A DNA stretch of 64,000 nt from Chrysophaeum taylorii. Taxonomy: Eukaryota; Sar; Pelagophyceae; Pelagomonadales; Pelagomonadaceae. The position numbers were made by a program, and so were the translations under genes. The notes beneath the pieces are model-generated. The model was not told the DNA's origin and did no database searches. It saw only the letters and a list, made by a program, of their open reading frames with translations. The stretch's first letter is position 1. Every line of letters starts with the position of its first letter. The DNA lies in assembly GCA_029834535.1 (NCBI GenBank), contig JAQMWT010000555.1:62001-126000 (forward strand), read 5' to 3'. Shown piece after piece: positions 1,424 to 35,752 of this stretch.

Positions 1424-4400
1424 TTAAGCAAGTGCAGTTGCAAACACTTGCAGCCTGGCCCGGAGGTAAGAGTCCTGCTCTTGCTCGCCGTCGAGCGCGC
1501 CCCACTCAAAAAATGGAATGTGAGCAACCTCCCAGCCAAGCCGCCGCAACAGTCGGGACTTGAAGCGCGTAGAGCCGTTCTCGACTCTCGATCTCTTGAG
1601 GTAGTGGTGTGGCCCGTCGACTTCGACCGCGCGCTTGGTGACAGGTTGAGCCATGTCGAGCGACAAGCCTTCTTCGGTCACGTGCTCGAAGACGTGCGGC
1701 GTCCAGCCAACTCGGTCGAGCGCGATCGCAACGTCGCGCTGGAGTTGGGACGGTCTTGGGTTCCAACGTTGATACGCCGCCTTGAGTATTTCCTGGTGGT
1801 TTGACAGCGGGGAGCTCCGTTCGGGCCATTCGAGTTGAAAGTGCAACGAAGCAAGGTGGAGCTGGGACAGTCCGCGATCATCGAGGGTGTCCAAATCGGT
1901 GACAGCGATGTGGGCGAGCTCTGAAAAAATCGCGGGGTCCTTTTTCCAGTCGACGCAGGCAAATGCCCACACTGTGTTGGCGAGGTCCTGCGGTTTAAAT
2001 TCGTCGAGCCGCGAAGGAGCCACGCCGGCCATCGCCACGAATAGCTGAGGCGCCTTGATGCCCGCCGTCGCGAACGCCCACGCTGTGTTGGCGAGGTTCT
2101 GCGGATTGAATTCCCCCAGCAGTGAAGGGGCCACGCCAGCAATCGCCGCGAAGAGTTGAGGTGCCTCGATACCCGCTGTCGCAAAGGCCCACGCTGTGTT
2201 GGCGAGGTTCTGCGGATCGAATTCCCCCAGAAGTGAAGGAGCCGCGTCGCCAATTGCCGCGAAGATCTGAGGTGAATCGATACGTGCCGTCGCGAAGGCC
2301 CACGCTGTGTTGGCGAGGTTCTGCGAATTGAACTCGCCCACCACCGAAGGAGGCGCGTCGGCAATCGCCGCGAAGAGCTGAGGTGCCTCGATATCCGCCG
2401 TCGCAAAGGCCCACGCCGTGTTGGCGAGGTTCTGCGGATTGAATTCCCCCAGCAGTGAAGGAGCCGCGTCGGCAATCGCCGCGAAGAGCTGAGGTGAGTC
2501 GAAACGCGCCGTCGCGAAGGCCCACGCCGTGTTGGCGAGGTCCTGCGAATTGAACTCGCCCAGCCGCAAGAGAGCCGCTTCGGCGAATGCCGCGAAGAGC
2601 TGAGGTACATCGATGCGCGCCGACGCGAACGCCCACGCCATGTTGGCGAGGTTCTGCGGAGTGAACTCGCCCAGCCGCGAAGTGGCCGCGGCAGCGATCG
2701 CCACGAAGAGTCCAGGTGCCTCGATGCCTGCCGTCGCGAAGGCCCACGCGGTGTTGGCGAGCCCTTGAGGATTGAACTCGCCCAGCCGCGAAGGTGCCGC
2801 GCTGGCGATCGCCGCGAAGAGCAGAGGTGCCTCGACGCCCGCCGTCGCGAAGGCCCACGCCGTGTTGGAGAGGTTCTGCGAATTGAACTCGCCCAGCCGC
2901 GAAGGGGCCGCGTCAGCAATCGCCGCGAAGAGCTCGGGTGCCTCGATGCGCGCCGTCGCAAAGGCCCACGCCATGTTGGCGAGGTTCTGCGGACTGAACT
3001 CGCCCAGCCGCGAATTGGCCGCGCCGGCGATCGCCGCGAAGAGCTGAGGTACCTCGATGCGTGCCGTCGCGAACGCCCACGCGGTGTTGGCGAGGTTCTG
3101 CGGATTGAACTCGCCAAGCCGTAAAGGAGCCGCACCGGCGATCGCCGTGAAGAGCAGAGGTGCCTCGATGCCCGCCGTCGCGAAGGCCCACGCGATGTTG
3201 GCGAGGTTCTGCGGACTGAACTCGCCCAGCCGCGAAGGAAAAGCGCCGGCGATCGCCGCGAAGAGCAGAGGTGCCTCGATGCCTGCCGTCGCGAAGGCCC
3301 ACGCGGTGTTGGCGAGCCCTTGAGGATTGAACTCGCCCAGCCGCGAAGGTGCCGCGCCGGCGATCGCCGCGAAGAGCTGAGGTGCCTCGACGCGCGCCGT
3401 CGCAAAGGCCCACGCGATGTTGGCGAGGTTCTGCGGACTGAACTCGCCGAGCCGCGAAGGAGTGGCGCCGGCGATTGCCGCGAAGAGCAGAGGTGCCTCG
3501 ATGCCCGCCGTCGCAAAGGCCCACGCTGTGTTGGCAAGCTCCTGCGGATTGAACTCCCCCAGCCGCGACGAAGCCGCGCCGGCGATCGCCGCGAAGAGGT
3601 GAGGTGAGTCAAAACGCGCCGTCGCGAAGGCCCACGTTGTGTTGGCAAGCTCCTGCGGATTGAACTCCCCCAGCCGCGACGAAGCCGCGCCGGCGATCGC
3701 CGCGAAGAGCTGAGGTGAGTCAAAACGCGCCGTCGCGAAGGCCCACGCCATGTTGGCGAGCTCCTGCGGATTGAACTCGCCCAGCCGCAAGAGAGCCGCT
3801 TCGGCGAATGCCGCGAAGAGCTGAGGTACATCGATGCGCGCCGACGCGAACGCCCACGCCATGTTGGCGAGGTTCTGCGGAGTGAACTCGCCCAGCCGCG
3901 AAGGAAAGGCGCCGGCGATCGCCGCGAAGAGCTGAGGTACCTCGATGCGCGCCGTCGCGAAGGCCCACGCGGTGTTGGCGAGCCCTTGAGGATTGAACTC
4001 GCGCAACCGTAAAGGAGCCGCGCTGGCGATCGCCGCGAAGAGCAGAGGTGCCTCGACGCCCGCCGTCGCGAAGGCCCACGCCGTGTTGGAGAGGTTCTGC
4101 GAATTGAACTCGCCCAGCCGCGAAGGGGCCGCGTCAGCAATCGCCGCGAAGAGCTCGGGTGCGTCGATGCGCGCCGTCGCAAAGGCCCACGCCATGTTGG
4201 CGAGCGCCTGCGGATCGAACTCGTCAAGCCGCGAAGTGGCCGCGCCGGCGATCGCCGAAAAGAGTTGAGGTACCTCGATGCGCGCCGTCGCGAAGGCCCA
4301 TGCGGTGATGGCGAGGTTCTGCGAATTGAACTCGCCCAGCCGCGAAAGAGCCGCGCTCGCAATCGCCGCGAAGAGCTGAGGTGCCGCGACGCCCGCCTTC

Positions 4401-5023
4401 GCGAAGGCCCACGCAGTGTTTGCAAGGCCCTGCGGATTAAACTCGCAAATGCAGCGCCGACAAGCGTCTGCGAGGGCCATCACGCGGCGATCCCGTTGCA
4501 CGTCGCGGCGGTCTCCAAACTTGGCGACGCGGTGCGCCGCGGTCGCCAAATTCCGAGCGCAGAATTTATGGCCTTGAGCCACAAAGAGCGAGAGAATCAT
4601 CTCGGGAGTCGCACCGCGGTCCGTCATCTGCTTCCCCCACTGCACTTGTTGCCATCGCGGTGCCTCGGCACTTCTGGCTCGCGCGCGGCTCGCGTCTGCG
4701 CAGCGACGGTCGTCGCGGCCGGCGTCGCCGCGGCGTCCTTGTCGCGCTGGCGAACGAAAACGGTGCGAGTCCCCGGCGCGTCGCCAGTCATCTCGCCCAT
4801 GGTGTTCTTCGTACCTCCGGCTTTGGCGTCCGTAGTTGTTTGATAACGGCGAGTCGTCGCGTCGCCTCAAAGTAGTTATCGTCTTCAACTCCCCACCTCG
4901 CGGAGGGATTTTATCATCGCTCCGCCCCGAGTCCACCATCTGTCGACGGCGAGGCGATGGCTCGTCGACGCGCCGATTCCGACCGTCGTCGTGGCGCCTT
5001 CTACTTCCGCCTCTTCTATGCAT
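1424..5023 (-). CDS. Heptatricopeptide-repeat (HPR) protein with C-terminal RAP domain
   Basis: A single 1199-codon frame. Residues 1-130 are Arg/Asp/Ser-rich and look disordered, or like an organelle-targeting leader. From residue 195 there are 22 near-identical 37-residue units (FNPQGLANTAWAFA, then about ten variable residues, then LFAAIA and SRLGE), followed by a 23rd divergent unit at residue 1009. Residues 1127-1190 form a RAP domain (RAVEVDGPHHYL, then GWEVAHIPFFEW), a restriction-endonuclease-like fold. Known for the family: 37-residue HPR arrays and related OPR arrays ending in RAP bind organelle RNA and act in maturation, stability or rRNA processing. I infer a mitochondrial or plastid RNA-binding role. 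The units are so alike that the array must have expanded or been homogenised recently. The start is the first ATG of the frame; ATGs further in, such as residue 29, are possible. No intron is needed. Confidence 0.85.
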   Translation of the reverse strand: MHRRGGSRRRHDDGRNRRVDEPSPRRRQMVDSGRSDDKIPPRGGELKTITTLRRRDDSPLSNNYGRQSRRYEEHHGRDDWRRAGDSHRFRSPARQGRRGDAGRDDRRCADASRARARSAEAPRWQQVQWGKQMTDRGATPEMILSLFVAQGHKFCARNLATAAHRVAKFGDRRDVQRDRRVMALADACRRCICEFNPQGLANTAWAFAKAGVAAPQLFAAIASAALSRLGEFNSQNLAITAWAFATARIEVPQLFSAIAGAATSRLDEFDPQALANMAWAFATARIDAPELFAAIADAAPSRLGEFNSQNLSNTAWAFATAGVEAPLLFAAIASAAPLRLREFNPQGLANTAWAFATARIEVPQLFAAIAGAFPSRLGEFTPQNLANMAWAFASARIDVPQLFAAFAEAALLRLGEFNPQELANMAWAFATARFDSPQLFAAIAGAASSRLGEFNPQELANTTWAFATARFDSPHLFAAIAGAASSRLGEFNPQELANTAWAFATAGIEAPLLFAAIAGATPSRLGEFSPQNLANIAWAFATARVEAPQLFAAIAGAAPSRLGEFNPQGLANTAWAFATAGIEAPLLFAAIAGAFPSRLGEFSPQNLANIAWAFATAGIEAPLLFTAIAGAAPLRLGEFNPQNLANTAWAFATARIEVPQLFAAIAGAANSRLGEFSPQNLANMAWAFATARIEAPELFAAIADAAPSRLGEFNSQNLSNTAWAFATAGVEAPLLFAAIASAAPSRLGEFNPQGLANTAWAFATAGIEAPGLFVAIAAAATSRLGEFTPQNLANMAWAFASARIDVPQLFAAFAEAALLRLGEFNSQDLANTAWAFATARFDSPQLFAAIADAAPSLLGEFNPQNLANTAWAFATADIEAPQLFAAIADAPPSVVGEFNSQNLANTAWAFATARIDSPQIFAAIGDAAPSLLGEFDPQNLANTAWAFATAGIEAPQLFAAIAGVAPSLLGEFNPQNLANTAWAFATAGIKAPQLFVAMAGVAPSRLDEFKPQDLANTVWAFACVDWKKDPAIFSELAHIAVTDLDTLDDRGLSQLHLASLHFQLEWPERSSPLSNHQEILKAAYQRWNPRPSQLQRDVAIALDRVGWTPHVFEHVTEEGLSLDMAQPVTKRAVEVDGPHHYLKRSRVENGSTRFKSRLLRRLGWEVAHIPFFEWGALDGEQEQDSYLRARLQVFATALA
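2000..4441 (-). repeat. Tandem array of 111-bp units (22 copies) inside the RAP gene
   Basis: Each unit encodes 37 residues, and unit n begins at 4441 - 111(n-1). There is higher-order structure: units 2-6 closely match units 13-17, a spacing of 11 units or 1221 bp. Units 7 and 8 are nearly identical to each other. Apparent long frames on the other frames and strand are shadows of this array. Confidence 0.9.
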
Positions 5024-6189
5024 TATTCTGTACGTGTGGTTGTTCTAGGCGGAGGTCAAGATGATGCACCCCTACGTCTGAAACTAGGCCCTATATTTGA
5101 AGTTCCGGACTCGGTTCCCGGAAGAGCGTCACTGAAAAGCTTAAGTGTTGTTGTACAAGTGCAGTATATATCCTTCAACCAGTTCCCCCTCGATCCCCCC
5201 GTTAATTTCATCGACCATTGATCTTGGCGTGGAAAACGCCTACCTAACGCTAAAACCCGCATACAGTTAATCTTTAGTATGTGACACACCTCAACTTGCC
5301 ACTTGCTGGGCTTCCTTTTTTTTTCACCGCTTGGCTGATGCGCGTAATTTCGGAGAACCGAAGAGGAGAGGCTCGCGGCGCGTTCGAGCTGGGCGATACG
5401 GTCTGGATCGTTGGCGACGCCGCAGTGCGCCGCCTTGACGATGCCGAGGGCGTCGAGATTTCGCGCGGCGAGCTTCTGCGTCGTCCCTTCGCCCTCCCAG
5501 GATCTTGCGGCACGTCCGGTCCTGGGCTGTCGGCTTGAGGATCGGATCTTATCTTCTTCTGTACGTCGTCGGTCATCTCGAGGCCGAGGCGCCCGACCTC
5601 ACGGACGAGTCTGTGATGGTCTTCTCACCTCTAGAAGTCACTATTAATGAGAGTTCTTGATTTGAGTCTATTATTAGTTAATTAATTATTTTCTGACAAG
5701 GCGAATTTCGTCGTGCTCTAGAAACGTTCACACATCGCCGAATTGTTGGATCTTCGCGATTTTTTTGCTCGTAGAGGGACCCAAGACAACGCGTCGTTTG
5801 CGCACATAAAAACCACCTGTTGCCCACACACCCCGACCCCTGATTTTCGGCGCGCTTAGCTTAGGTAGGTGGTTCTTAATTGTAGACTTACTCTATCCCC
5901 CGCTGATTAATAAGAGCTGATGATGACCTCCGATGTTCAAACTTTACTCAATCCTTACCCCGCTGTCGGAGGGCTTGAGCCGTGCCCTAAAACCCAGCGT
6001 TTGCACTTTTACTCGAAGTTAAGGGTACAAGGAAAACGCCTTTACTCTGAGGTGGCAAGGAGGGGCAACGAATAAATCAAGTGGCTAACGGTTACCGAGT
6101 GAGTCGAGGGTAAAGTAAAATAGGCAGTCGCGAGCCGCCGCAGGCCGCCGCGAGCCGTCTACTCTTCCGGAGCGGGTCCGTGTCGTCCT
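5024..6189. other. Intergenic, nothing recognised
   Basis: Upstream side of the RAP gene. Contains short non-coding-looking frames, a TTAATTAATTAATT run near 5677 and AT-richer sequence to 6080. The RAP promoter must lie in the first part, but I see no clear core element. Confidence 0.5.
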
Positions 6190-17016: not shown

Positions 17017-17161
17017 CCTTGGCCTTGGCCAAAAGAGCCAGGCGGCGCCTCCTCCTCCCCTCGTGTCGGTGGGTTTTTTTTTTTTTTGAGAACACGTTAT
17101 CCTAGCCCTAACCCCCGAACCCCTTAATAATCCTAGCCCTTATACACCACCCTAAACCCTC

Positions 17162-18304
17162 ATGTGCAACACCGACGACAGGTGGGAGCGATGGGAAAGG
17201 GAGCTCGGTTCGCCAAAGTTTGTGTGCGCGCCGATGGTCGACCAGAGCGATTTTGCGTTTCGCGAACTCGTGCGGTCGCGGGGGGTGGATTTGTGTTATT
17301 CGCCCATGCTTCTCGCGGAGCAGATGGAGTCGGCGGCGTATCGGGACCGGTACCTCCCAAAAGACCGGTGCGTCGTGCAGCTGGGGGGCAGGAAGGAGGC
17401 CGTCCTCCGCGCGGCGCGGTTTATTTCGCAGCAGCAGCAGCCGATCGATTTGAATCTCGGGTGTCCGCAGCGGTGTGCGAGGCGCAAAGGATTCGGAGCG
17501 TATCTTTCTGACGACGAAGCGATAGATATCGTGAAACGACTAAAATGTTCGGCGAAGATACGGAAAAGATCCGACACCGTCGAATTTGCGAAACGCCTCG
17601 CCGCCGCCGGGGCGTCGTTTATCGCGGTCCACGGTAGGACCGTCGATCAGAAAGCGCGCGGACCAGCCGATTGGGATGTCGTGAGAGAAGTGGTTCTGGC
17701 TCTGCCGGAGGTTCCCATAATCCTGAACGGCAACGTCAGGTCCAGAGAAGACGCGATAGCGGGGCTCCGGTACACGGGGGCGGCGGCCGTCATGTCTGCG
17801 GAGCCCTTGTTGGCGATGCCGTCGCTTTTTCGCGGGCCAGAGCTCGCGCGAGACGCGGCTCGAGCGTATCTAACCCTCGCCGCCGCGCACGACACCCCCC
17901 TTCCCTGGGTCCGCGAGCATATTTCGGCGATACTCCACGAGGACGTCGTCGATTTCAGGGACGTGGACGGGGCGGATTTTTTTTGTTATCCTCCCGTCCG
18001 CCGCGACCTTTTGTCTACGGAAGATCGAGAAAAAGCTGAAAAACGCCGCGCCGAGAGACACAAATTCAAAGCTATGATCGCTGGCCTGCGGATCCCGGTT
18101 CCCCGCCACGGAAGAAGCGGCGGCTGTCCGCGGTGCGCCAATCCGTCGAAGAAGACGTGTCCGGTTAGAGCGTGCGCCCGGTGTTGTGCCGTACTCAGAA
18201 ACGCTGACGCAGACTGCGGCAACCACGACTCCAAAAAGAGAAAGAGGTTGGACAACCTCTCCGGGTGTACGGCAGAGAGCGGTGGTGGTCTTGGGTCTAC
18301 CTAA
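17162..18304 (+). CDS. DUS1: tRNA-dihydrouridine synthase, DUS1 type
   Basis: An intact, intronless 380-codon frame. The enzyme uses FMN and NAD(P)H to reduce uridine to dihydrouridine in the tRNA D-loop; DUS1 members act at positions 16/17. Visible motifs: APMVDQSDFAFR (residues 23-34, FMN pocket), VVQLGG (71-76), DLNLGCPQ with the catalytic-type Cys at 101, SAKIR with Lys 132, AVHGRT with His 157, NGNV, and GAAAVMSAEPLLAMPSLF near 220 (phosphate-binding region). QLGG and the LNLGCPQ plus SAEP pattern favour DUS1 over DUS2-4. The C-terminal third is basic and has a Cys cluster (CPRCANPSKKTCPVRACARC), possibly a zinc-binding tRNA contact. The first ATG sits close before the conserved core, so little is missing. 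Upstream 17100-17160 is C/A-rich with CCCTAA-like words and no obvious TATA box. A likely active housekeeping gene. Confidence 0.92.
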   Translation: MCNTDDRWERWERELGSPKFVCAPMVDQSDFAFRELVRSRGVDLCYSPMLLAEQMESAAYRDRYLPKDRCVVQLGGRKEAVLRAARFISQQQQPIDLNLGCPQRCARRKGFGAYLSDDEAIDIVKRLKCSAKIRKRSDTVEFAKRLAAAGASFIAVHGRTVDQKARGPADWDVVREVVLALPEVPIILNGNVRSREDAIAGLRYTGAAAVMSAEPLLAMPSLFRGPELARDAARAYLTLAAAHDTPLPWVREHISAILHEDVVDFRDVDGADFFCYPPVRRDLLSTEDREKAEKRRAERHKFKAMIAGLRIPVPRHGRSGGCPRCANPSKKTCPVRACARCCAVLRNADADCGNHDSKKRKRLDNLSGCTAESGGGLGST

Positions 18305-24720: not shown

Positions 24721-26504
24721 GACGCGCCGTACCAAGCTTATCAACGAGAAGGAAGATCACCAAATTCATGCTTGGTTGCGCTCTGCCTTTCGTCAACACC
24801 TTTTTCTTCATCGATATGATCACGGCGCTCAACGCGGCCTACAACGTCAAGCACTTGCCCAAGTCCGAGGCCTTTCGGCGCGCCACGGCTTTTTTTTGAA
24901 GAGACCGTGCAGAATATCAACAAGATGCGGTTCGTTCGCCACCGGCAACTTGGCTATTGGGTTCGACGGCTTCAAGAGGTGAGCTGACGTGGCGGTTCGA
25001 AACCTAAACCCCACAAAAATGTGTGTCGTTTTTTACCGGAAGAAAACCCAAAATTACCTACCCCCATAAAAAAAAAAAAAAAAAACGAGAGGTTTTTACG
25101 GTAAAATCCTTCTTGCACTGCCAAGGTAAGCTATAGCCTTAATAGCAGGGGCAGAAGGGACGGCTAGGAAGGAAGAGAGTTCCACGAACGAGAGATGGTC
25201 GTTCGAAACATAAATAGCGTCGTCCAGAGCGGATGGTAGTACGTACGAACGAGGGAGAGTGGGACTCTGTAAGCTTCATCCGCAGGCAAACCTTTCGCAG
25301 CAAAGTTGGTGACATTGAAAGGACGTCGGCAAGCGTTGGAGGGGATGGAAGTTCTGCTTGCATCGACGAAGCAGAGCGTGTCGTCTCGGCTCGGCTGAAT
25401 CTGGTGGTAGTCAAGGGGGCTCGCGAGATACGCCTCTCGGGAGAGAAGGGCGCACTACCGAGTAAAGCATTGGCGAGATCCAAGGATAGTGGGAAAAAAG
25501 AAAGGGCTAGTTTAACGACATTGTAGCAGGGTTAGGAGAGAACGGAACGTAGCAAAGTCGGCTGCAAGCGGTTTGGCGAAGCCATCCGCCACAATTAATT
25601 TGCCATGGTGAACGCTTTTGCAATGCGACGTTTTGAACCAGCGTGTAGACTGTGCTTTGCACACACGAGCAGTAGAAGTGAGCATCCGACGACAAGAGTG
25701 GTAGACTCCAGCATATCCTCAGGGTTGCAACGAGCTCAATGGGTAGTAAAGAGAAATCTGCTGCCTCTTACCCATATCCGTCCGTTGAGAACGTGATCTC
25801 TTCCTTACCCTTATTCTTCCTTTTTTCTACACAATCTAATAGTCCTCTGATTTGTGCCTACGCTCATCATCATGGTCTAGCGCGTCCCGAGGTATGTAGC
25901 ACTATACACTTAACCTTTCTCGTGTAGTTCTAGATGCCGCCTGTCGTGTTCTGAGGATGATATAGGGAACATAACCTTTTCATTTCCCGAATTAACTACT
26001 TCCAGATATTCACGATGAGACGGGATGGTTTCCCAGGTGACTTACCACTGCTTTGCTAAATGCTCTGCAGGTTATGGGCCCAGGCGGGTCCCTGAGAAAC
26101 CATGTGTTAAAACATGCACGTAACCTATGGGTATTGGACTTTTACCGCGCCAGTCCAGCCTCGCCATGTGACACGCTTGTTTTATATAACGCCATTACCA
26201 TTGGGCTGTATATAATATTTTTTTTGCACGCGTGATCGTGTAACCTTGTGTGCACCTGTTCATAGCATCGTATTGTTATGTTAATGCTGATGTGTGTGTA
26301 ATTGGCTAACCTGTACTCTTGCACACATGTTATGGAATATTTTGGGTACGTCCACTCGTACATTATATGGCAATGCACTTAACAAGCTCCTTGAGAGCAC
26401 CAAAACTAACCAGCTGCCTGAGTGACTACGCTTAGCGACACTACTCTGGACTCACAGCTTGCACAGTCGTCATATAGACACATTTTCCATCGAAAAATCG
26501 ATGA
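24721..26504. other. Leader side of the Copia element and unassigned DNA
   Basis: Includes a poly-A run at 25069-25085. From about 25600 on, the sequence becomes AT-rich like the retrotransposon and probably holds the 5' LTR/leader. I could not fix LTR ends, a TG...CA pair or a primer-binding site. One pyrimidine-rich patch (CCGTTGAGAACG near 25783) recurs at 36286 and may be an LTR trace. A 97-codon plus frame at 25233-25523 has no recognisable motif. Confidence 0.35.
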
Positions 26505-26594
26505 GTGTACATAGACACCGATAGACAGACCCCCTTAGAATGTCTAGACAGTGTCAACTGCGTGACTGAACCCACAGGTTCCCCGTCAACTGCT

Positions 26595-28790
26595 ATGGCA
26601 GAACACGCAGCACGAGCCGCACCCAAGGCGATCACAGGTGCGGATATATTGAAGCTCGAAGCTCCTGTAGTTGAGTTTCTTAACGAAGGAAATCGGTTTC
26701 AGCTTCAGAACCGCAAGGTATCCTTGCAAATCAAGCATATCAAGCAATTACTACGGTCCAGTCATGCCGATGCTTTCCTCGAGTACGACTCGTACGAAGC
26801 ATATACTCGGTCATGCAAGGACTACGAAATCCTCCGGAATCAAATTCTCGATCGCGTTTTCCTGGAATGGAAGACCGATAGGGCTGCTGATCTCCGTTTA
26901 GCTGTTGATGAATTGCCCCCTGAGTATCAGGAATGGCATTTCACCAACGAAGCTTTCCCCAACTTACCTGATGCAGAAGTAGCTCAGCTAACTACTGTCT
27001 GTTACGACTATGAAGTCAAGGCATTACGTCCTGAAATCAATGCCCGTTTCTTAGAAGAGGAACGAATCTTAAATCGCGCGCACCCGAAGGCACTAGCTTT
27101 CGACACCCGTGTTCGTGCCCCGGTTACCATGTTTTCGTTAACTGCAGCTGACTGGCACACTTACCAGAACACGTACGCTACATTCTTGCATACTTACTTC
27201 AATCTTGAAAGTGTTGGAAAACCGGCACTTGCGGCCTGGCCCGCCATCAACGAGATATACAACAAAAGCTATTTACCCAACAAGGCTCGAGCTATTATGC
27301 TCATCGCCTTTAATCACTACGAGTCTGTTACGACTACTGATGTGTCTTATTTGAAACAGCAATTTAACTCTGTTGTTTATAATCCTAACTGGTATGTCCA
27401 TGTATTTATCGAAGCTGTCCTAGCATTTAGGCAAATCTCTTACCAACTTAACCAGGAAGAGACTGACCTTCAATTCGACTTTGGCACTCTTTGCAGAAAA
27501 ATCTATGAAGAGATACATCGGCATTATGCCGATAATACCAGCAACAACCGTTACGATCGTGGTTGGGTAGATTGGTGTTATATGTACGAAACCCGATCTC
27601 CATCTCGACCTGTACCAGAAGCTGAACGATTGTGTCACCCTACCAACCCAAGCTACATTTTAGAATACGCATTAGACCTTTACAATGTCGTATCAAACGG
27701 GTCGAACAAAAGACGCTTAGAACGCCCTGTTTCTTGGCAACCCTATGTCGAAGGTTTATCAACTCAACCAAAGCCAAAGTTACTCCTTACACATGCTTTG
27801 GACTCATCGGACAAAAGTCTGACTCAAACTGCTAACACACTCGCCTTCATCACTTCGTCCCAACCTGGTACATCTTCCACGTTTAACGCTAGACGCTTGC
27901 GTAACTCTAATGATGCTCGCCAGCCTTTCTCTCGCAGCGATTTATCGTATTATCGTCCTGGTGATTCTTACGTCACCAAGAAAACTGCCGGACAGTCCCA
28001 TGACCGTCCAATTTACCCCCGCACTTTTGACAGGTCCTCTCGGTCTAACATGAAATTATTAGATCGAACAAACCACACCTTAAACACCCTGCGAGAACAG
28101 TGTAGCGAACTCACGAAGCATGTGACAGATAATGATACCACGGCTCAGCTACAACATAATATCAACAAGTTATTTGAGACTTTGCTACAATCAGCCGATA
28201 TCCTGTCAACAACATCTACGGAGGACAACCGTAGTTTACTTCGTCTAAACGAACAGCTCATGTTTGCAGAAGACATCATTTGTGATGTAGACGTTCATCT
28301 ATCCTCGACCGAAAAGTCGTTAAACTACGTGGAGCCACAACACCATACTGTCGTTACTGCTCCCACCCCAACAACAACTCCTCCTACTACAAACACACAG
28401 GGTAATCTTTCCAATACTGTGTCTAACCTCTTTACCGCTTCCGCCATTTCGGCTTTACCACCAGCATTATTGTCCTCGTTATCTTCACAGGTCCAATCTG
28501 CGCTCAACATACCATCACAAGCCGAAACCAAAAGGGATGCCGATCATACTTCGCTATCGTCATTTGATGAAAAGCACGGCATGGCTGATGAGGCTGACGA
28601 ACCATCACCACCTGTTCAACCGATTATTATTCCAACGAATCTGTTATTGCTGGAGAACTTCTTCACAGCCAGCCTCTCCACTACTTGCCCACATTCGGAA
28701 AACGCCTTCCTCACCAACTACATGAAGGTAAACAGTGTCCCTCCACATTGCTCTTTTCTATATTTTGACTCTGTGCTACCATCTCATTGA
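26595..28790 (+). CDS. gag: Gag-like capsid/structural ORF of the Copia element
   Basis: This frame is open from 26505; I favour the ATG at 26595 (MAEHAARAAP), giving about 731 codons, because the upstream codons look like leader. The N-terminal ~400 residues are helical and mixed-charge (for example FLEYDSYEAYTRSCKDYEIL and HYADNTSNNRYDRGW), as expected for a capsid domain. A Ser/Arg-rich middle and a coiled-coil-like stretch (LDRTNHTLNTLREQCSELTK) follow, then a Pro/Thr-rich linker. No CCHC zinc knuckle is visible. Function is inferred from position first in the element; the sequence itself is not one I recognise. It overlaps the next ORF by 4 nt in another frame, possibly an original frameshift site. 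Confidence 0.6.
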   Translation: MAEHAARAAPKAITGADILKLEAPVVEFLNEGNRFQLQNRKVSLQIKHIKQLLRSSHADAFLEYDSYEAYTRSCKDYEILRNQILDRVFLEWKTDRAADLRLAVDELPPEYQEWHFTNEAFPNLPDAEVAQLTTVCYDYEVKALRPEINARFLEEERILNRAHPKALAFDTRVRAPVTMFSLTAADWHTYQNTYATFLHTYFNLESVGKPALAAWPAINEIYNKSYLPNKARAIMLIAFNHYESVTTTDVSYLKQQFNSVVYNPNWYVHVFIEAVLAFRQISYQLNQEETDLQFDFGTLCRKIYEEIHRHYADNTSNNRYDRGWVDWCYMYETRSPSRPVPEAERLCHPTNPSYILEYALDLYNVVSNGSNKRRLERPVSWQPYVEGLSTQPKPKLLLTHALDSSDKSLTQTANTLAFITSSQPGTSSTFNARRLRNSNDARQPFSRSDLSYYRPGDSYVTKKTAGQSHDRPIYPRTFDRSSRSNMKLLDRTNHTLNTLREQCSELTKHVTDNDTTAQLQHNINKLFETLLQSADILSTTSTEDNRSLLRLNEQLMFAEDIICDVDVHLSSTEKSLNYVEPQHHTVVTAPTPTTTPPTTNTQGNLSNTVSNLFTASAISALPPALLSSLSSQVQSALNIPSQAETKRDADHTSLSSFDEKHGMADEADEPSPPVQPIIIPTNLLLLENFFTASLSTTCPHSENAFLTNYMKVNSVPPHCSFLYFDSVLPSH

Positions 28791-29284
28791 TGTCCACTTG
28801 TGATTTTGCAATACCCAATCATATAATTCCACTGGACTCCAAATACGCGCCGATTGTTATTCAGACGGCTACAGGACAACAACGGGCATCACACATGATG
28901 TTAACACGCAACATCGTTATTCCCCTACCAGATCATCCACAAGTTGGCTACGTTAAGATCGACTTCGCTTTATGTCTTCAACCAGTGCATGACCGACATC
29001 TCGCTATCCTGAGCATGCTCGAATGGAACCAGACCAATCTTACCACCGTGTTCAACGATCGAGCTGAGCCAAGGCCCAGCGCTGTCACGAGCCGCATAGA
29101 CAAAGATGTACGTATATCCATACACTATGTCGCAGCTAATTTACCCGCTCTCCCTTGTATCACTTACAACATCGCGCGCGACAAGCGGCTGGAACTTCGC
29201 TCCCTTGCATTTCCCCTCAAGCGATACCATGATAACAGGGAGCTACAAGTGCAGGCCAGTAAGTTCGCCAGTAAGTTCACCTAG
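28787..29284 (+). pseudogene. Protease-like fragment of the Copia element
   Basis: A 165-codon frame following gag. VIQTATGQQRASHMML, about 25 residues, then HDRHLAILSMLEWNQ resembles the flap and the 'aiLG.d.L' helix of retroviral-type aspartic proteases. The catalytic D-S/T-G triad is not clearly present: the nearest candidate is PLDSKYAP upstream, with K in place of G. The frame runs into the GTAAGTTC repeat array and ends there. Either the protease lost its active site, or the true active site is in the gag tail. Tentative. Confidence 0.35.
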
Positions 29285-29592
29285 TCCCAATCTCTAACCC
29301 CAGTAAGTTCACCTGGTCCCAGTAAGTTCACCTAGTCCCAATCTCTAACCCCAGTAAGTTCGGCGTAAGCCCACTCGTGCTCACACCCACTCACCCCACT
29401 CTCCTTCGAGCTCGTCGCTCTCACCTCCGCCAATCTAAGCTGCTTTGATCCGTACACGCCGCTAGCCTTTGCGTTCACTCTAAAAACCCCAGTAAGTTCA
29501 CTTGGTCCCAGTAAGTTCACCTGGTCACTAAGTTCACCTAGTCCCAATCTCAAACCCCAGTAAGTTCACCTGGTCCCAGTAAGTTCACCTAC
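29255..29592 (+). repeat. Irregular tandem array of AGTAAGTTCACCTGGTCCC-type units
   Basis: About nine copies of AGTAAGTTC, usually followed by ACCTGGTCCC or ACCTAGTCCCAATCTC, spaced irregularly, with an unrelated segment at about 29360-29490 in the middle. The unit contains GTAAGT, the consensus eukaryotic 5' splice donor. It interrupts the element between protease and methyltransferase. Confidence 0.85.
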
Positions 29593-29991
29593 AGTGCGCG
29601 CGTAGACGCCGGGAGGGGGCTTATCGGTTGGGGTAGGGTGGAGTCGTCGACTCAGAAGAGGATATCCTCGGGGTTGCCGATCGACAGAGAGCCACGTAGA
29701 GCTGGACGTGGCAGAAGACGGGCTTCGCCAAGAGGACGCCGACCTCGCGGGGCGTCTGGCCCTGGCTCTTGGTGATCGTTTGGCGTCGGCGGGCCTTACG
29801 GGATACAGGTTGGAGGAGCCTCGGTGACAACGACACGATCGATCATGTATCTGGTACCGTTGCAGTGGCCGTGCGACGGGTCGAGGTTGCGAAGACTTTA
29901 AGCTCGCGATCAAAGTCAGCATGCCGTTGGTTGTCAGGGAGTTCAAAACTCGACTCTAAGAGCGAGGCGTCGTCTTCCGACCCAACCTAGT
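29593..29991. other. Unique filler inside the Copia insertion
   Basis: GC-rich, unlike the surrounding retroelement and like the host flanks. No coding motif seen. Confidence 0.5.
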
Positions 29992-30191
<200 letters not shown>

Positions 30192-30258
30192 AAAACATCT
30201 GTCGATTAGTAGTAAGGACTGGCATACTACAATTACCTACTCCAACGAGTTTACCAGA

Positions 30259-31704
30259 TTGGCCGTGGATTCGCCCTTTGGTTCTCAATCTTCGGAAACA
30301 GAACAAATTTGTTCAGCAAAATACGCAGCCATTGAGTTGACTACTCGCACGGCCAGTTTTCTCTCACAAGAGTCCAATCTCCGCAAACCCTCTGTCATGT
30401 TACTTTGTTCTGGTTTGTCAACTCCGGCGTTCCTGTCTCAAGCCACTAATGACTTAGGTTTAAATTTCAATGTAAAAGTTGTAGTTGAGTCTGATGATAC
30501 GCTTGTTCGTATGTTACGCCACCGTTTTCCTACTGTACTATTATTTGAATCTCTCCCCGCCTTTATTAACCATCTTAGCTTAATCTCACCAGAGGAAAGG
30601 CGCACATTCTATTGTGATATAATTGAGATCACACCTCCCTGCACAAACAGGAATTTACTAAAACAACAAAAGTCAGAAGACTTACACAGCCTGCTGGACG
30701 ATTCTCTTTTCGACAGCATGCTGTCTGTCATCAAACTACTCCAGCCCTTGGTACTACTGGCTGAGATGACGCCTCCGCATAAGTACTGTCACCAAGACCA
30801 CATCACAGTGGCCAACCTTATCTATGCTACTCTTGATTACTGTGTCGATGTTGTTGATAGGTTCCCGACCTACCTATGTGGCGACTACCAATCTAGAGAA
30901 AGATGGATATGCGTCGCACGCAGATATTCTACTGGACCAATTAACCTATCATCGTGGCCCATCCTCCATCCACGCCCCTTCCTAAAGATCGTGGATGATC
31001 TACAAGCTATTCCCAAGCGCCTTTGGCTACCTAACCACATATCCAAAGACTGGATCCGGGTGTTCCCCGATCCTCCATACATCCCCGTTCCTAAAACGTT
31101 TGCACCTTACTCTCGCACAGGTTCTGCTCAGCTTACTATGGCTGACCTTGAATCCCTCAATATGTTACTACTTCGCCTTCACTCACAACAGGCTCACGAG
31201 CAACGTACTCACTCTGTTCAACCCGAGTGTACTTACCATCAGTTGTGCTTTAAACGCTCCTCTATGGAGCCATTACCTAATGCAACACATCCTATACACG
31301 TCAAGATTTTTACAATCCTCTATAACGTGTTTGCAAGCTTACATACTAACTCACCCACTCCTGTGTCCTATTACATAACCGTTTTCGAAACTAACCAACC
31401 GTCACACAGGTTATTACTTACAACCTCATCAACATCACACAACTCCTACTTCTTAACTGGTGGCCACCATTCCGACGGCAACCTCACCATAGAGAACGCC
31501 ACCACCAAAACTCCAACTCCCATCAACGCCTTTGAGAGAACGTATACGTTCACTGCTTCCGACATCCCCCGCGACCGGGACAGATCCATATATCTGGAGC
31601 CGTTTGTGGGTTACTTGTGGATAGTCCAAGCCTTTCCCAAGTTGGCTCCGCTACCACCTATGGCACCGCCATACAAAACCTCGTGTCCAGATGCGCTCTC
31701 GTGA
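30259..31704 (+). pseudogene. C5-cytosine DNA methyltransferase-like domain, catalytic part
   Basis: An uninterrupted 481-codon frame. Residues 45-60 (SVMLLCSGLSTPAFLS) fit motif I (SAM binding); VVVESDD (75-80) fits motif II. CDIIEITPPC (119-128) is motif IV with the catalytic Cys at residue 128 (nt 30640-30642). LLAEM (166-170) is motif VI with its Glu. CGDYQSRERWICVARR (207-222) is motif VIII, Q-x-R-x-R. The rest, residues 225-481, is the position of a target-recognition domain and is unusually long. C5 methyltransferases attack cytosine with the motif-IV Cys and protonate with the motif-VI Glu; both are kept. Motif I has lost the usual second and third Gly, so activity is uncertain. The ATG may be internal to an original polyprotein. 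The domain lies between protease and integrase. Frame breaks after it make the copy a pseudogene. Confidence 0.75.
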
Positions 31705-31990
31705 TGCCTGGCTGCCTTACCTACTAGGCCACCGACAACTCTTTCGATTACAAGGATTCTCTTTTGCTCTGGAAGATCATCACCTATCTCATAGTCGCTA
31801 TATAGGGTACCTTCGTGGAAGTGACCGCAAACTCGGCTCTAAAATCCACTCAATGCTTGCTCCATTGCCAACCGTCCGAGGGTATGCCAATATTATTTTA
31901 CTCGACCCTCGCAACGGGAAATTACGCTACCCCACTCGACCGGAGTTGATTCGTGCTAACAACCACACCAAACAACAGGAATCCTCTTGT
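31691..31990 (+). pseudogene. Methyltransferase-like domain continued: target-recognition end and motif IX
   Basis: A second frame overlaps the end of the previous one by 14 nt and reads FRLQGFSFALEDHHLSHSRY, then YANIILLDPRNGKLRYPTRP and ELIRANN. 'L-R-Y-P-T-R-P-E-L-I-R' suits motif IX of C5 methyltransferases (R-x-l-T-x-R-E-x-a-r). The frame continues to 32137, but the protein-like signal leaves it at about 31990. Confidence 0.55.
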
Positions 31991-32496
31991 CTCTACGCCA
32001 TGACCTTTGCTGTGACATGCTCAGCAATGCTCTGCCTGCCGGTACGTACAGCACTCTGTACAAGCACCTTTCGCTCATCGTCGCCGATATTAAATCCCTT
32101 ATGTTGGACCCTACCTTCCAACATACTGCTGCCGTGACGAAGAAATCCTATGTATCCAATTTCATGACCGTTGACCAAGCCTCCACCACGTGCAGCACAG
32201 ATACCTTGTCTTTGGCACAATCTTTTATGATGTCTATTTCCAGCAACTGCTTGACCGAAATGTCGTTAAACTATATATCGTCGTCCTACGAAGATACTCT
32301 CGCTACTCGTGATAATGAGGATGCACCTCCAAGTGACCCTGCTGTGCACCAGGATGACGACGCACCGCCTTCCACTGCCTTAGACACCGAACTCAAGTTC
32401 GATGTTCGGCGCAAACGGCACATTCCCGCTCATCCATTCCTCGTAAGTCCTCGCACACGGATCCACCGAATATCTCAATGCCAAAGAACGTGCTAA
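31987..32496 (+). pseudogene. Methyltransferase-like domain end (motif X-like) and linker to integrase
   Basis: A third frame reads CDMLSNALPAGTYSTLYKHL, close to motif X (Q-x-G-N-A-V-P-x-x-l-a), followed by helical LIVADIKSLMLDP and then an acidic Pro/Asp-rich linker. Motif X completes the SAM pocket. The shift out of the previous frame at about 31985 separates motifs IX and X, a clear disabling change unless frameshifting occurs. Confidence 0.5.
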
Positions 32497-32833
32497 TCGC
32501 TTTCACCGGGTGCATCACTGCCCCGACAACGTCGCTGCCAAGGCCCCCAACGTACTTGCTCGCCCTGGATTCTCTGCTTCTGACATACCATATCGCGACT
32601 TATGCACCGACTGCATCGCACACAACAAGCGCCACCCGCACAAGCATTTCAATGCGACCAAGCCTTCTTTTGAGCAAACCCACAAAGCCGGTGAAGTCTG
32701 GGCGTGCGACGGCGGCTATGTGACCATCCCATCCGAATGGGGAGGCTTCACACATATCATCGTCTTCAAGGAACTCATTTCGAAATTTCTCATGGTGTAC
32801 TTTACACGCACCAGCTCTGGATTTTGTGTATGA
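32440..32833 (+). pseudogene. Copia integrase: zinc-binding domain and start of catalytic core
   Basis: The frame reads EYLNAKERANRFHRVHHC, then LCTDCIAHNKRHPHKH about 28 residues on. This is the H-x3-H...C-x2-C zinc-binding (GAG-pre-integrase) module. It then reads AGEVWACDGGYVTIPSEWGG, the start of the rve integrase core with the first catalytic Asp at 32708-32710, and ELISKFLMVYFTRTSSGF. It stops at 32833, where the reading moves to the next frame. Confidence 0.8.
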
Positions 32834-33530
32834 CTTCTGTCGTACGCAACTCAATGTGCACATGCGCACCCTCTACTCCGATGCATTCAAGCCTTACTTT
32901 AGCCAGCACATTACCTCCCCGTACCGCGTCGATAAGGGCATTCAACTCATTGCCTTCCCGCCGTACATGCACCACTTTAACTTTGAAGTTGAGTCTGCCA
33001 TCGGTTTCATCGCCTCCGCCTCCTCAACTCGCCTTCGTTCTCTCCTTAATGCTCACTATCGTGGCGCCAAGATCGTGGAACCCGCTATCATGTTCCCATG
33101 GGCGGTGATACACACCGTTCAAAGCTATAACCTTCTCCCGAACGCCACGCTCGAGCGCATTCATCATGCTATTCTGAGCCCGCAAAAGCTACTCTACAAC
33201 CAACTCAGCACTTCCCAACACGATATGCTCAAGATTTTTGGCGCTGAATGTTACCTCCTATTGGAGCCCCATGAACACCACAAGTGGGAACCGTGCCGCC
33301 GCAAATATTTATATCTCTGTTGCGCCAACGCACAAAACCCGCTCGTCTCCCCACGCGTCGACCATCTCGCTGACGTCGTCCTCAACCCTGAAAACGGACA
33401 AATTCGTGTTTCGTCCAAGCTGCAATTCCTCTACATGTTGCAGCATCCTACTCCTGATCCTGAACTAGCTCCTCCGCCACACGCTCCTTCCGCGCCTTTC
33501 TCGCTCACACCCCACACCACTATGCAAGAT
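32826..33530 (+). pseudogene. Copia integrase: rest of catalytic core and C-terminal part
   Basis: The frame 32826-33773 supplies TLYSDAFKPYFSQH (second Asp, 32880-32882) and YMHHFNFEVESAIGF (Glu, 32991-32993). The spacing is 36 residues, as in D,D35E-type cores, with FNFEVES at the usual qNG.aEr position. The integrase C-terminal feature KYLYLCCANAQNPLVSPRVD follows (compare 'GiFlGY...ayRv'). The sequence after about 33530 is Pro/His-rich linker. Confidence 0.75.
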
Positions 33531-33957: not shown

Positions 33958-35400
33958 TTGTTAGCTCGTCTTCTTCTCCCGTTGCGCACTGACTTACTTG
34001 CCCGCTACCCGCACGTCGATGGTTACTTCGCCCACGCCAAGTGCGCATCCAGCATCCCAGCTGCAACCTTTTTAACTGCTGATGGTTCACCTACGTGCCC
34101 TATTCCTCAGCCCCTTTTATCTGCGTTCACTGAACACGCTGCTGCCTTCGGCACTTCTTCCTTACAATATGCACTTACGTACCTGGCGCCGACCAGCTTT
34201 ATTGATCACAACTCATCCGAGTTTGGCGCTACTTCTGCATCTCTGGCTGACTTGGAGGAATACCTTCTGGTCTCTACAGAGTTTATCACCCAGGTCTTAC
34301 GTACCGACCCTACTATCCATATCCAACTGGAATCTGCCCCTACTACTCCTACTGACGCTGTTTCCGCTTATCCCGAAGTTGCGCACACTGCCTCGACCGC
34401 AACGTCGCTAAACTATAATTCACCAGCCACTGTTGGTCCTGACGAATATAAGGTCCAAGAAGCGGACGTTTCCATTGACGAATATAAACTTAAGTGCCTC
34501 CAGGGTTTGTCGCCTGAAAACAGGCACGCCTACCTCAAGGCCATCGCCGAGGAACTCCACGACATTATCCGCTTTGGCTGCTTCAAACTTTCCTTACCCG
34601 ACGGTGTCTCTCGTCCTATTGACAGCAAGATGGTGCTGAAGATTAAAACAGACTCTGCAGGCAAATACGTTAAGCACAAGGCTCGCCTCGTACTACGTGG
34701 CTACCTAGCATCTCTTGGCGCCGATTTCTTTGGTACCTTCAGCCCCATGGCCACTATGACCGCAATCCGGGTACTACTAGCTATTGCAGCATACAAGCAA
34801 TTGCCTGTCTACCATGCAGACGTCCCGAACGCCTTCGTTCAGTCTGACATCGATGCTAATGTCTATGTTCAATTACCAGACGGCATCAAGCTTATCGACC
34901 CCGATGACGCTAAGTACAAGGGCCGACGTCTACCGAAACTGGTGAAGTCACTTTATGGACTTAGGCAATCACCATCCCTTTGGAACAAAGAGATAGACGG
35001 CGGCTTCTTCCGTAGCCTTGGTTACAAACGCCTGCATTCGGACTCTTGCCTATATGCTCGAGTATCCGCACATGCTAAGTTCGTCGTATGCAGTCTGTCT
35101 GTAGACGACATTGTTATTGTGTCCAATGACGACCCACTTCGTACTGAATTACAGGATGCCCTCCGCAAACGGTATGCTGTAGAACAGTTTGAACCTGTCC
35201 ATACCCTCCTAGGCATGCGTGTGTGTCGCACATCTGACGGCTCCATTTCTCTGGATGTGCAAGCCAAGCTGGATGAACTCTTCGCTGATCACCCAGTCTT
35301 GCAGCAACTGACCCCGCCGCTTAAATATCCTATGTCATCGTCCTTCAAGTATAAAGATGGCACACTGAAACAGAGTTGTAAATCAACTCGCACTTTGCCA
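33958..35400 (+). pseudogene. Copia reverse transcriptase
   Basis: A 543-codon frame from 33958 to 35589. The RT core starts near 34550 (FGCFKLSLPDGVSRPIDSKM, the Copia 'T(W)..V.LP.g...I..kwv.k.K' block). It then reads KHKARLVLRGYLASLGADFF, YHADVPNAFVQSDIDANVYV (first catalytic Asp), LVKSLYGLRQSPSLWNKEI and SLSVDDIVIVSND (catalytic VDD at 35101-35109, where Copia usually has YVDD), then VHTLLGMRV. Domain order and motifs are complete, so this is the best-preserved part. The N-terminal 200 codons are acidic/Ser-rich linker. An upstream frame ends at 33964, overlapping this one by 7 nt. Confidence 0.92.
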
Positions 35401-35485
35401 CCCTCCTTGGCAAGGTGCTGGTGTTCATGCAAGTTGCCTGCAGACCCGACTTCTCTCGCATGCCTTAGGCAGATGTTCGCGTGGT

Positions 35486-35752
35486 ATGCATGCACCCACA
35501 TATGTTCACGTCCAAATGCTACTAGAGCATTTACTTCGCTACCTCAAGAAGCCGGAAAACCGCTCACTTCGCCTCTGGTTTCACCCTAAAGGTAATGCCA
35601 TTGAAGCTGACCTTCGCACTGTCTCCGCTAATCGAATTGATCTATCCACCGTGGTTGACTACCAACCACAGGATGTATCTCCAGACGCTCGATCTCTCGT
35701 GCGTTTCCGTTTTTCGCGAGGACCGAACGAGATTTATTGTTTTCTGAACTGA
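35486..35752 (+). pseudogene. Copia RNase H, N-terminal remnant
   Basis: HVQMLLEHLLRYLKKPENRS is the Copia 'H..a.kr.lRYLkgT' helix before RNase H. The following LRLWFHPKGNAIEADL is the first strand, but the D-x-D-W-A-G block and everything after are missing. The retroelement signal ends about here, so the 3' end with its LTR appears truncated. Confidence 0.65.

What the first reader, a model, noticed from the sequence alone, without database searches (positions are those of the whole stretch)
30259..32200. A Copia retrotransposon that carries a C5-cytosine DNA methyltransferase-like domain
Seen: motifs I (CSGLS), II (VVESDD), IV (TPPC), VI (AEM), VIII (QSRER), a motif IX-like PTRPEL and a motif X-like SNALP occur in the correct order. 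They lie between a gag/protease-like region and a clear HHCC plus DDE integrase, Copia RT and RNase H. Known: C5 methyltransferases need the motif-IV Cys and motif-VI Glu, and both are present. To my knowledge retrotransposon-borne DNMTs have been reported only rarely (a dinoflagellate and a charophyte alga); I could not check. Inference: the element captured a DNMT, perhaps to methylate its own DNA for silencing, tolerance or targeting.
Basis: partly seen in the sequence, partly recalled or inferred. Interest (0 to 1): 0.93.

Follow-up and report, generated by a model that had tools for sequence, protein, structure and literature searches.

The report
Copia retrotransposons carrying a DNA methyltransferase
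In an unnamed eukaryote genome, at least three families of a common jumping gene (Copia type) carry, inside their own polyprotein, a cytosine DNA methyltransferase domain kept intact by selection, so these elements may chemically mark DNA with a tool that hosts normally use to silence them.

Summary
The frame at 30259-31704 encodes the first part of a C5-cytosine methyltransferase domain; motifs IX and X follow at 31925-32049 in other frames, because this copy is damaged. The window sequence has no Pfam hit, but its homologues do: P0004 (34% identical over 242 residues) matches PF00145 at 1.2e-10, P0002 at 6.1e-5. The domain is not a nested insertion: 95 scored places in this genome (window included) carry it; a scored Copia RT lies downstream in 27 of 95, in 0 of 95 by either control. 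A second family has one unbroken 1,951-residue frame with PF00145, integrase and RVT_2; a third family was found. The domain evolves under purifying selection (median dN/dS 0.14-0.26). Known DNMT retrotransposons are LINE, DIRS and Gypsy (PMC5890265); one sentence in PMC12344493 names LTR Copia. So this is a new variant of a known kind. Two host-like methyltransferase genes read here are DNMT5-like and DNMT2-like; 45 of 57 PF00145 places were not read. Whether the element enzyme methylates DNA is untested; CpG sites in copies show no excess C-to-T change.

The parts
25750..26070 (+). 5' LTR (about 320 bp; ends TGCAGAG...CTCTGCA in the C42 copy)
   Evidence: Matches LTR sequence of sister copies on C42, C325 and C311
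26071..26083 (+). Putative primer-binding site GTTATGGGCCCAG, complementary to the initiator tRNA-Met anticodon arm (tRNA sequence recalled)
   Evidence: Sequence; tRNA not confirmed: ARAGORN and Rfam found none at the 4 of 13 genomic sites tested
26505..28790 (+). Gag-like open frame (761 aa)
   Evidence: same region lies in one 892-aa frame in the C311 copy L023; no Pfam family over its cut-off
28740..29246 (+). Aspartic protease-like region (FDSCATISLM, by eye), frame-shifted in this copy near 28770
   Evidence: FDSCATISLM in one frame in L021; no Pfam hit
29247..30217 (.). 971-bp inserted repeat (CAGTAAGTTCACC repeats and an (ACAG)n array), also at the same junction in L010 and elsewhere in L007, L015, L035, L042
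   Evidence: Absent from 20 of 22 copies; repeats
30338..30340 (+). UGA stop (UGA CUA) between gag-protease and DNMT-pol; in frame with DNMT in 17 of 22 copies, off by one base here
30370..32049 (+). C5-cytosine methyltransferase domain, motif I to motif X (TPPC Cys codon 30640-30642, Glu of AEM 30763-30765); frame breaks after 31700 in this copy
32447..33330 (+). Integrase (HHCC by eye, rve core, SH3-like part), broken frames
   Evidence: PF00665 E 0.029 and PF25597 E 2.4e-4, both under their cut-offs
34594..35253 (+). Copia reverse transcriptase, RVT_2
   Evidence: PF07727 E 8.8e-41
35254..35680 (+). End of the copy: connection region up to the truncation, before the RNase H core and 3' LTR
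   Evidence: Homology to L022, L023 and L036 stops at 35679-35680 in all three

Best explanation
It is a damaged copy of an LTR retrotransposon of the Ty1/Copia type whose polyprotein has the order gag-protease-C5 methyltransferase-integrase-reverse transcriptase-RNase H. Shown: the domain is homologous to C5-cytosine methyltransferases, belongs to the element, occurs in at least three families, and evolves under purifying selection with its catalytic Cys and Glu kept. Inferred: it is made as part of a low-abundance Gag-Pol product (by bypassing the conserved UGA in family 1, by frameshifting in family 2), packaged with the RNA and reverse transcriptase, and methylates cytosines of the element's own cDNA before or at integration, so that new copies carry a mark that the host's DNMT5-like enzyme could propagate. 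Effect on the element: camouflage or controlled dormancy. Probability of the identity part about 0.95; of DNA (rather than RNA) as substrate about 0.65; of the packaging and self-methylation step about 0.5.
For: Homology: window vs P0004 E 2e-25 for the pair, P0004 in PF00145 at 1.2e-10, P0002 6.1e-5 and P0001 4.4e-4. Second family: PF00145 2.9e-10 for L027; its profile finds only C5 methyltransferases among its 16 PDB matches at E<=10 (best 0.0024, M.HhaI from 0.0032); profile-profile link to the window family 96.2%, E 2.5e-9 over 206 columns. One unbroken frame with PF00145, rve (under its cut-off) and RVT_2. Same-genome copies; scored RT 2-7 kb downstream in 27 of 95 places, 0 of 95 upstream, 0 of 95 on the other strand within 7 kb (only 150 of 1,670 RT candidates were scored). 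LTR pairs 92.7% (C42), 97.4% (C325, over the 273 bases compared) and 88.9% (L034) identical. Motifs in 20 copies, window included: CSGLS 19, TPPC 19, AEM 18, QxRER 18. dN/dS median 0.26 over 188 of 190 pairs (dS>0.02), 0.20 over the 36 pairs with dS>0.15; family 2 median 0.14 over 36 pairs of nine sequences. DNMT5-like host gene: 2,086-aa frame with PF00145 and SNF2, PDB 7r76 E 0. Precedent: retrotransposon DNMTs can methylate CGs de novo (PMC5890265, abstract).
Confidence: 0.55

Rival explanations
1. The domain is an active C5 methyltransferase but its substrate is RNA: it methylates the packaged genomic RNA or the tRNA primer, as DNMT2 methylates tRNA.
For: It would be packaged with RNA and primer (inference); the SymbioLINE DNMT tested in yeast did not methylate DNA and RNA was suggested (PMC5890265, section 11); no CpG decay signal in copies.
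Against: No pairwise similarity to the host DNMT2-like protein; the PDB matches of family 2 that name an enzyme are DNA methyltransferases such as M.HhaI and M.HaeIII.
Confidence: 0.25
2. The domain has lost catalysis and is kept as a structural, RNA-binding or SAM-binding part of Gag-Pol.
For: Motif VI Asn is lost outside family 2; sequence is so divergent that Pfam misses the window copy and family 3.
Against: Motif IV Cys and motif VI Glu are kept in the three families and in P0001-P0003 and P0004; median dN/dS 0.14-0.26.
Confidence: 0.15
3. A host methyltransferase gene or another element is nested inside this Copia copy.
For: A real insertion (29247-30217) lies directly upstream.
Against: The DNMT segment is present at the same place in 20 of 22 copies that lack that insertion, at 95 scored places, and in one unbroken polyprotein frame with rve and RVT_2 in family 2.
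Confidence: 0.01
4. The motifs are chance matches in a non-methyltransferase linker region.
For: No Pfam hit for the window sequence; weak structure models.
Against: Significant direct homology to PF00145 members and the family-2 match.
Confidence: 0.02

Closest known systems
SymbioDIRS-Dnmt3, SymbioLINE-Dnmt and KnitGypsy-Dnmt3 (de Mendoza et al. 2018, PMC5890265; abstract and sections 6, 9, 11 read, passages of section 7)
   Same: A C5 methyltransferase inside retrotransposon coding sequence, high copy number, purifying selection, key residues kept.
   Different: Those are DIRS, LINE and Gypsy elements in a dinoflagellate and a charophyte; that paper states that the abundant Copia elements of Symbiodinium lack any DNMT domain. 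Here the element is Copia, the domain sits between protease and integrase, and a DNMT3 relation was not tested.
DNMT3 members in LTR Copia and DIRS elements, one sentence in PMC12344493 (2025; section 5 read, passages otherwise)
   Same: Names LTR Copia as a carrier of a DNMT.
   Different: It cites the 2018 paper, which describes a Gypsy element, so the wording may be a slip; no anatomy or host is given in the section read. Whether it is this clade cannot be told.
Tca2 of Candida albicans (PMC2194720; abstract read)
   Same: Retrotransposon with gag and pol separated by a UGA stop.
   Different: No methyltransferase mentioned in the abstract; in family 1 here the UGA comes after the protease; the Tca2 junction sequence alone did not direct readthrough in yeast.
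DIRS elements with Dam-like adenine methyltransferases (mentioned in PMC5890265, section 6)
   Same: DNA methyltransferase carried by a retroelement.
   Different: Different base, structurally unrelated enzyme, different element order.

Membership tests
C5-cytosine DNA methyltransferase (PF00145) | Significant match to the family profile | tested here: inconclusive
   Window copy none at E<=10, family 3 none; direct homologues P0004 1.2e-10, P0002 6.1e-5, P0001 4.4e-4 (under cut-off), sister family 2.9e-10
C5-cytosine DNA methyltransferase (PF00145) | Motif IV Pro-Cys nucleophile | tested here: met
   TPPC at 30631-30642; PC in all 7 aligned rows that cover it; TPPC in 19 of 20 copies
C5-cytosine DNA methyltransferase (PF00145) | Motif VI Glu (usually ENV) | tested here: met
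   Glu kept in all 7 rows that cover it and in P0004; ENV in family 2, AEM, MEM or SEM elsewhere; LAEMT in 18 of 20 copies
C5-cytosine DNA methyltransferase (PF00145) | Motif I and II SAM-binding positions, motif VIII QxRxR | tested here: met
   CSGLS, E.D, Q(S/A)RER in window family; family 2 has AGGLHQEG and CEI but only part of motif VIII
C5-cytosine DNA methyltransferase (PF00145) | Motifs IX and X, C-terminal to a target recognition region | tested here: inconclusive
   R..(S/T)..E and (S/A)NA(I/L/V)P in all three families; no Pfam hit for that piece alone
C5-cytosine DNA methyltransferase (PF00145) | Fold of the catalytic domain | tested here: inconclusive
   Low-confidence models; C5 methyltransferases lead but tie with other Rossmann folds
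C5-cytosine DNA methyltransferase (PF00145) | Methyl transfer to cytosine C5 | not testable with these tools
   Needs biochemistry
Ty1/Copia LTR retrotransposon | RVT_2 reverse transcriptase | tested here: met
   E 8.8e-41
Ty1/Copia LTR retrotransposon | Order PR-IN-RT-RH (IN before RT) | tested here: met
   IN before RT in the window and L034; protease and RNase H by eye only; RNase H absent from the truncated window copy
Ty1/Copia LTR retrotransposon | Direct LTRs | tested here: met
   Sister copies C42, C325 and L034; window copy has the 5' LTR only
Ty1/Copia LTR retrotransposon | Target-site duplication and tRNA primer site | tested here: inconclusive
   Flanks match over about 4 bases by eye; primer tRNA not confirmed
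DNMT3-type retrotransposon methyltransferase | Placement within DNMT3 in a tree | not tested
   No reference DNMT set at hand

The most novel reading that the evidence does not exclude
In a host whose own C5 methyltransferases read here are DNMT5-like (maintenance, by recalled analogy) and DNMT2-like (tRNA), the Copia elements encode the other C5 methyltransferases found; the host methylome would then be seeded de novo by its retrotransposons and copied by DNMT5, so that the parasite, not the host, writes the silencing mark. The Copia population would form an ancient clade defined by a built-in orphan methyltransferase. Not excluded by the evidence, but 45 of 57 PF00145 places were not read and intron-split host genes can be missed.
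Probability: 0.2. Interest if true: 0.88.

Novelty: new variant of a known kind. Interest (0 to 1): 0.63.

Why it matters
It adds the Copia class, with clear anatomy, many copies and three divergent families in one genome, to the retroelements that carry a cytosine methyltransferase. That points to an old recruitment of an enzyme that hosts use against such elements, and makes the question of why an element would methylate DNA testable. If host and elements split the work (elements write, DNMT5 copies), it bears on where de novo methylation comes from in lineages without DNMT1 and DNMT3.

Tried and rejected
Rejected: recent capture from the two host-like genes read, since no pairwise similarity was found (best E 0.23). 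Tried without result: PDB sequence search with the window frame (one unrelated match at 0.7), with A2 (C5 methyltransferases at E 0.46 and 0.57 among unrelated entries) and with P0004 (nothing relevant); Rfam on the window; tRNA search for the primer; RNA structure after the UGA; viral-contig scan (alignment too divergent, not run); naming the host by 18S rRNA (search did not complete). Short-chain dehydrogenases in the fold lists are taken to share only the Rossmann core (inference). Paper searches on carriers of a methyltransferase (listings of titles and abstract starts, capped) showed no Copia element with a C5 methyltransferase beyond the sentence in PMC12344493; two searches asked other questions. 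Subscription papers and preprints are not in that library. PMC9998398 and PMC12477816 were seen as passages only; the latter reports a Sola1 transposon with an N4C or N6A methyltransferase.

Full report
Check of the observation. The frame 30259-31704 holds CSGLS, VVESDD, TPPC, AEM and QSRER in order. Motif IX-like RYPTRPELIRAN (31925-31960) and motif X-like SNALPAGTY (32023-32049) follow in two other frames. Pfam gives no hit for this frame at E<=10, and a PDB sequence search finds one unrelated match at E 0.7. So by itself the window would leave doubt, and relatives were needed.

Identity of the domain. Three searches of 5.8 billion proteins gave P0001 (MMETSP transcript, 392 aa, 42% identical) and P0002 (38%), then with alignments P0003 and P0004 (P0005 and P0006 at E 0.1 and 0.27 were not followed). 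P0004 matches PF00145 at 1.2e-10, P0002 at 6.1e-5 (over the curated cut-off), P0001 at 4.4e-4 and P0003 at 0.0026 (both under it). Window against P0004: 34% identity over 242 residues, E 2e-25 for the pair. This chain settles homology to C5 methyltransferases. The structure models are poor (pLDDT 43 and 46). Foldseek puts a C5 methyltransferase first for the window model (3g7u, E 1.3e-5) but an oxidoreductase first for the P0001 model. VIA-align on the P0001 model puts C5 methyltransferases in its first 19 rows, with dehydrogenases within about 1 Z, which counts as a tie. They agree with the assignment but would not carry it alone.

The element. The window copy has a 5' LTR (25750-26070), gag, protease-like part, the methyltransferase, integrase (PF25597 2.4e-4 and PF00665 0.029, both under cut-off) and a Copia reverse transcriptase (PF07727 8.8e-41). 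Against L021 (C42), L022 (C325) and L023 (C311) its main blocks are 82.6-96.7% identical; homology stops at 35679-35680 in L022 and L023 and L036, so the copy is truncated before the RNase H core (seen by eye in L036) and the 3' LTR. Of 22 distinct copies checked, 20 are continuous across 29246/30218 and two (the window copy and L010, 60 kb away on the same contig) carry the 971-base insert, whose sequence also occurs elsewhere in L007, L015, L035 and L042; the flanking matches overlap by two bases, as a 2-bp duplication would leave. Sister LTR pairs are 92.7% identical (C42, 11.85 kb from end to end) and 97.4% (C325, 273 bases compared).

Copies. The own-genome search with the domain gave 97 match rows at 95 places (two rows continue others), the window's own included; the other places are 81-97% identical; 55 of 97 rows have no internal stop (hand count); 1,495 candidates existed and 95 were scored, so this is a lower bound. 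Of 95 places, 27 have a scored RVT_2 match 2-7 kb downstream on the same strand, against 0 of 95 upstream and 0 of 95 on the opposite strand within 7 kb; only 150 of 1,670 RT candidates were scored.

Second and third families. PF00145 rings at 57 places in this genome, all over the cut-off (123 of 474 candidates scored). Two are host-like genes (L024, L025). Ten of the other 55 were read (L026-L035): all ten carry LPCQHLS and an IVEN motif; the remaining 45 were not fetched and are only guessed to be the same from similar match ranges. In L034 a single unbroken frame of 1,951 residues contains a protease-like LIDGGASF, PF00145 (1.1e-7), rve (0.0061, under cut-off) and RVT_2 (1.6e-38); a separate gag frame precedes it and LTRs 88.9% identical flank it. 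RNase H follows in another frame by eye; Pfam did not name it. A profile of this family finds only C5 methyltransferases among its 16 PDB matches (best E 0.0024) and aligns with the window family at 96.2% probability. L044 and L045, fetched because of their different RT match ranges, belong to a third family whose domain is 50% identical to the window's in the alignment; Pfam does not detect it. No Copia without the domain was sought systematically.

Selection. Among 20 copies of family 1 (window included), dN/dS has median 0.26 (188 of 190 pairs with dS>0.02) and 0.20 (36 pairs with dS>0.15); among nine family-2 sequences (L032 left out) 0.14 (36 pairs). The ratios include decay after insertion, so selection on active lineages is probably stronger (inference).

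Junction of gag-protease and pol. In family 1 the two parts are separated by a UGA. Among 22 distinct copies (L017 and L023 are one copy) UGA is present in 21, followed by CUA in 20, and in frame with the methyltransferase in 17; none of the 21 has a sense codon there; L022 has another sequence at that place. In 8 of 20 copies with UGA CUA the upstream frame is open to the edge of the fetched stretch. I read this as a conserved gag-pol control signal, probably readthrough; that UGA CUA favours readthrough is recalled. Tca2 offers a precedent for a UGA at this kind of junction, not for the mechanism. Family 2 places gag and pol in different, overlapping frames.

Host enzymes. L046 encodes a 2,086-residue frame with PF00145 and SNF2, matching PDB 7r76 with E 0; that entry is deposited as Rad8, which I recall as the Cryptococcus DNMT5 structure. 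L024 matches PDB 1g55, DNMT2, at 3.9e-39. No DNMT1 or DNMT3 was recognised, but the search is exon by exon, can miss intron-split genes, and 45 places were not read. The element methyltransferases tested (P0004 and L034) show no pairwise similarity to either host gene (best E 0.23), so a recent capture from these is unlikely.

Test against the self-methylation idea. In 17 of 20 copies (L002, L008 and L017 left out for indels) C-to-T or G-to-A change at CpG is 6.7 per 1000 cells, below CpC 8.8, CpA 9.5 and CpT 16.0. CpG observed/expected is 0.94 and 0.99 in the two element stretches of the window, 0.84 in the LTR, and 1.24 in the rest of the window, with TpG/CpA 1.16-1.18 in the stretches against 0.93; this leans the other way but base composition differs. 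Codon position was not controlled. The result does not support dense long-term CG methylation of this segment.

Mechanism. As for other retroelements (established knowledge), the domain should enter particles as part of Gag-Pol and meet the cDNA there; de Mendoza et al. report de novo CG methylation by retrotransposon DNMTs (abstract; sections 6, 9, 11 read). I favour cDNA methylation with maintenance by DNMT5; RNA as substrate is the main rival.

Novelty. The 2018 paper reports LINE, DIRS and Gypsy carriers and says the Symbiodinium Copia elements lack a DNMT. A 2025 paper mentions DNMT3 members in LTR Copia in one sentence. Hence a new variant of a known kind: Copia class, position between protease and integrase, divergent sequence type, three families. 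The host could not be named.

Noticed in passing
L037:164-2245 (C325), also L036 and L045:5427-6536: Between RNase H and the 3' LTR lies a further open region of 427 and 266 codons with no Pfam family over its cut-off (only weak coiled-coil matches); similar stretches by eye in L045 and, degraded, in L036.
   Followed up: partly
L046:1168-7425 (C621): Host-like gene with methyltransferase and SNF2 parts, DNMT5-like (PDB 7r76, E 0).
   Followed up: partly
L024:1498-2577 (C634): Host-like DNMT2 gene (PDB 1g55, E 3.9e-39).
   Followed up: partly
window 29247-30217: 971-bp repeat with CAGTAAGTTCACC units and an (ACAG)n array, possibly with a 2-bp target duplication; also in L010 (same junction), L007, L015, L035 and L042. 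Nature unknown.
   Followed up: partly
L037:2889-3498 (C325): A second, diverged gag start shortly after the 3' LTR, suggesting two elements in tandem.
   Followed up: no
window 1424-5044 (-) and 17156-18304 (+): Host-like genes: a FAST/RAP-domain protein and a dihydrouridine synthase.
   Followed up: no
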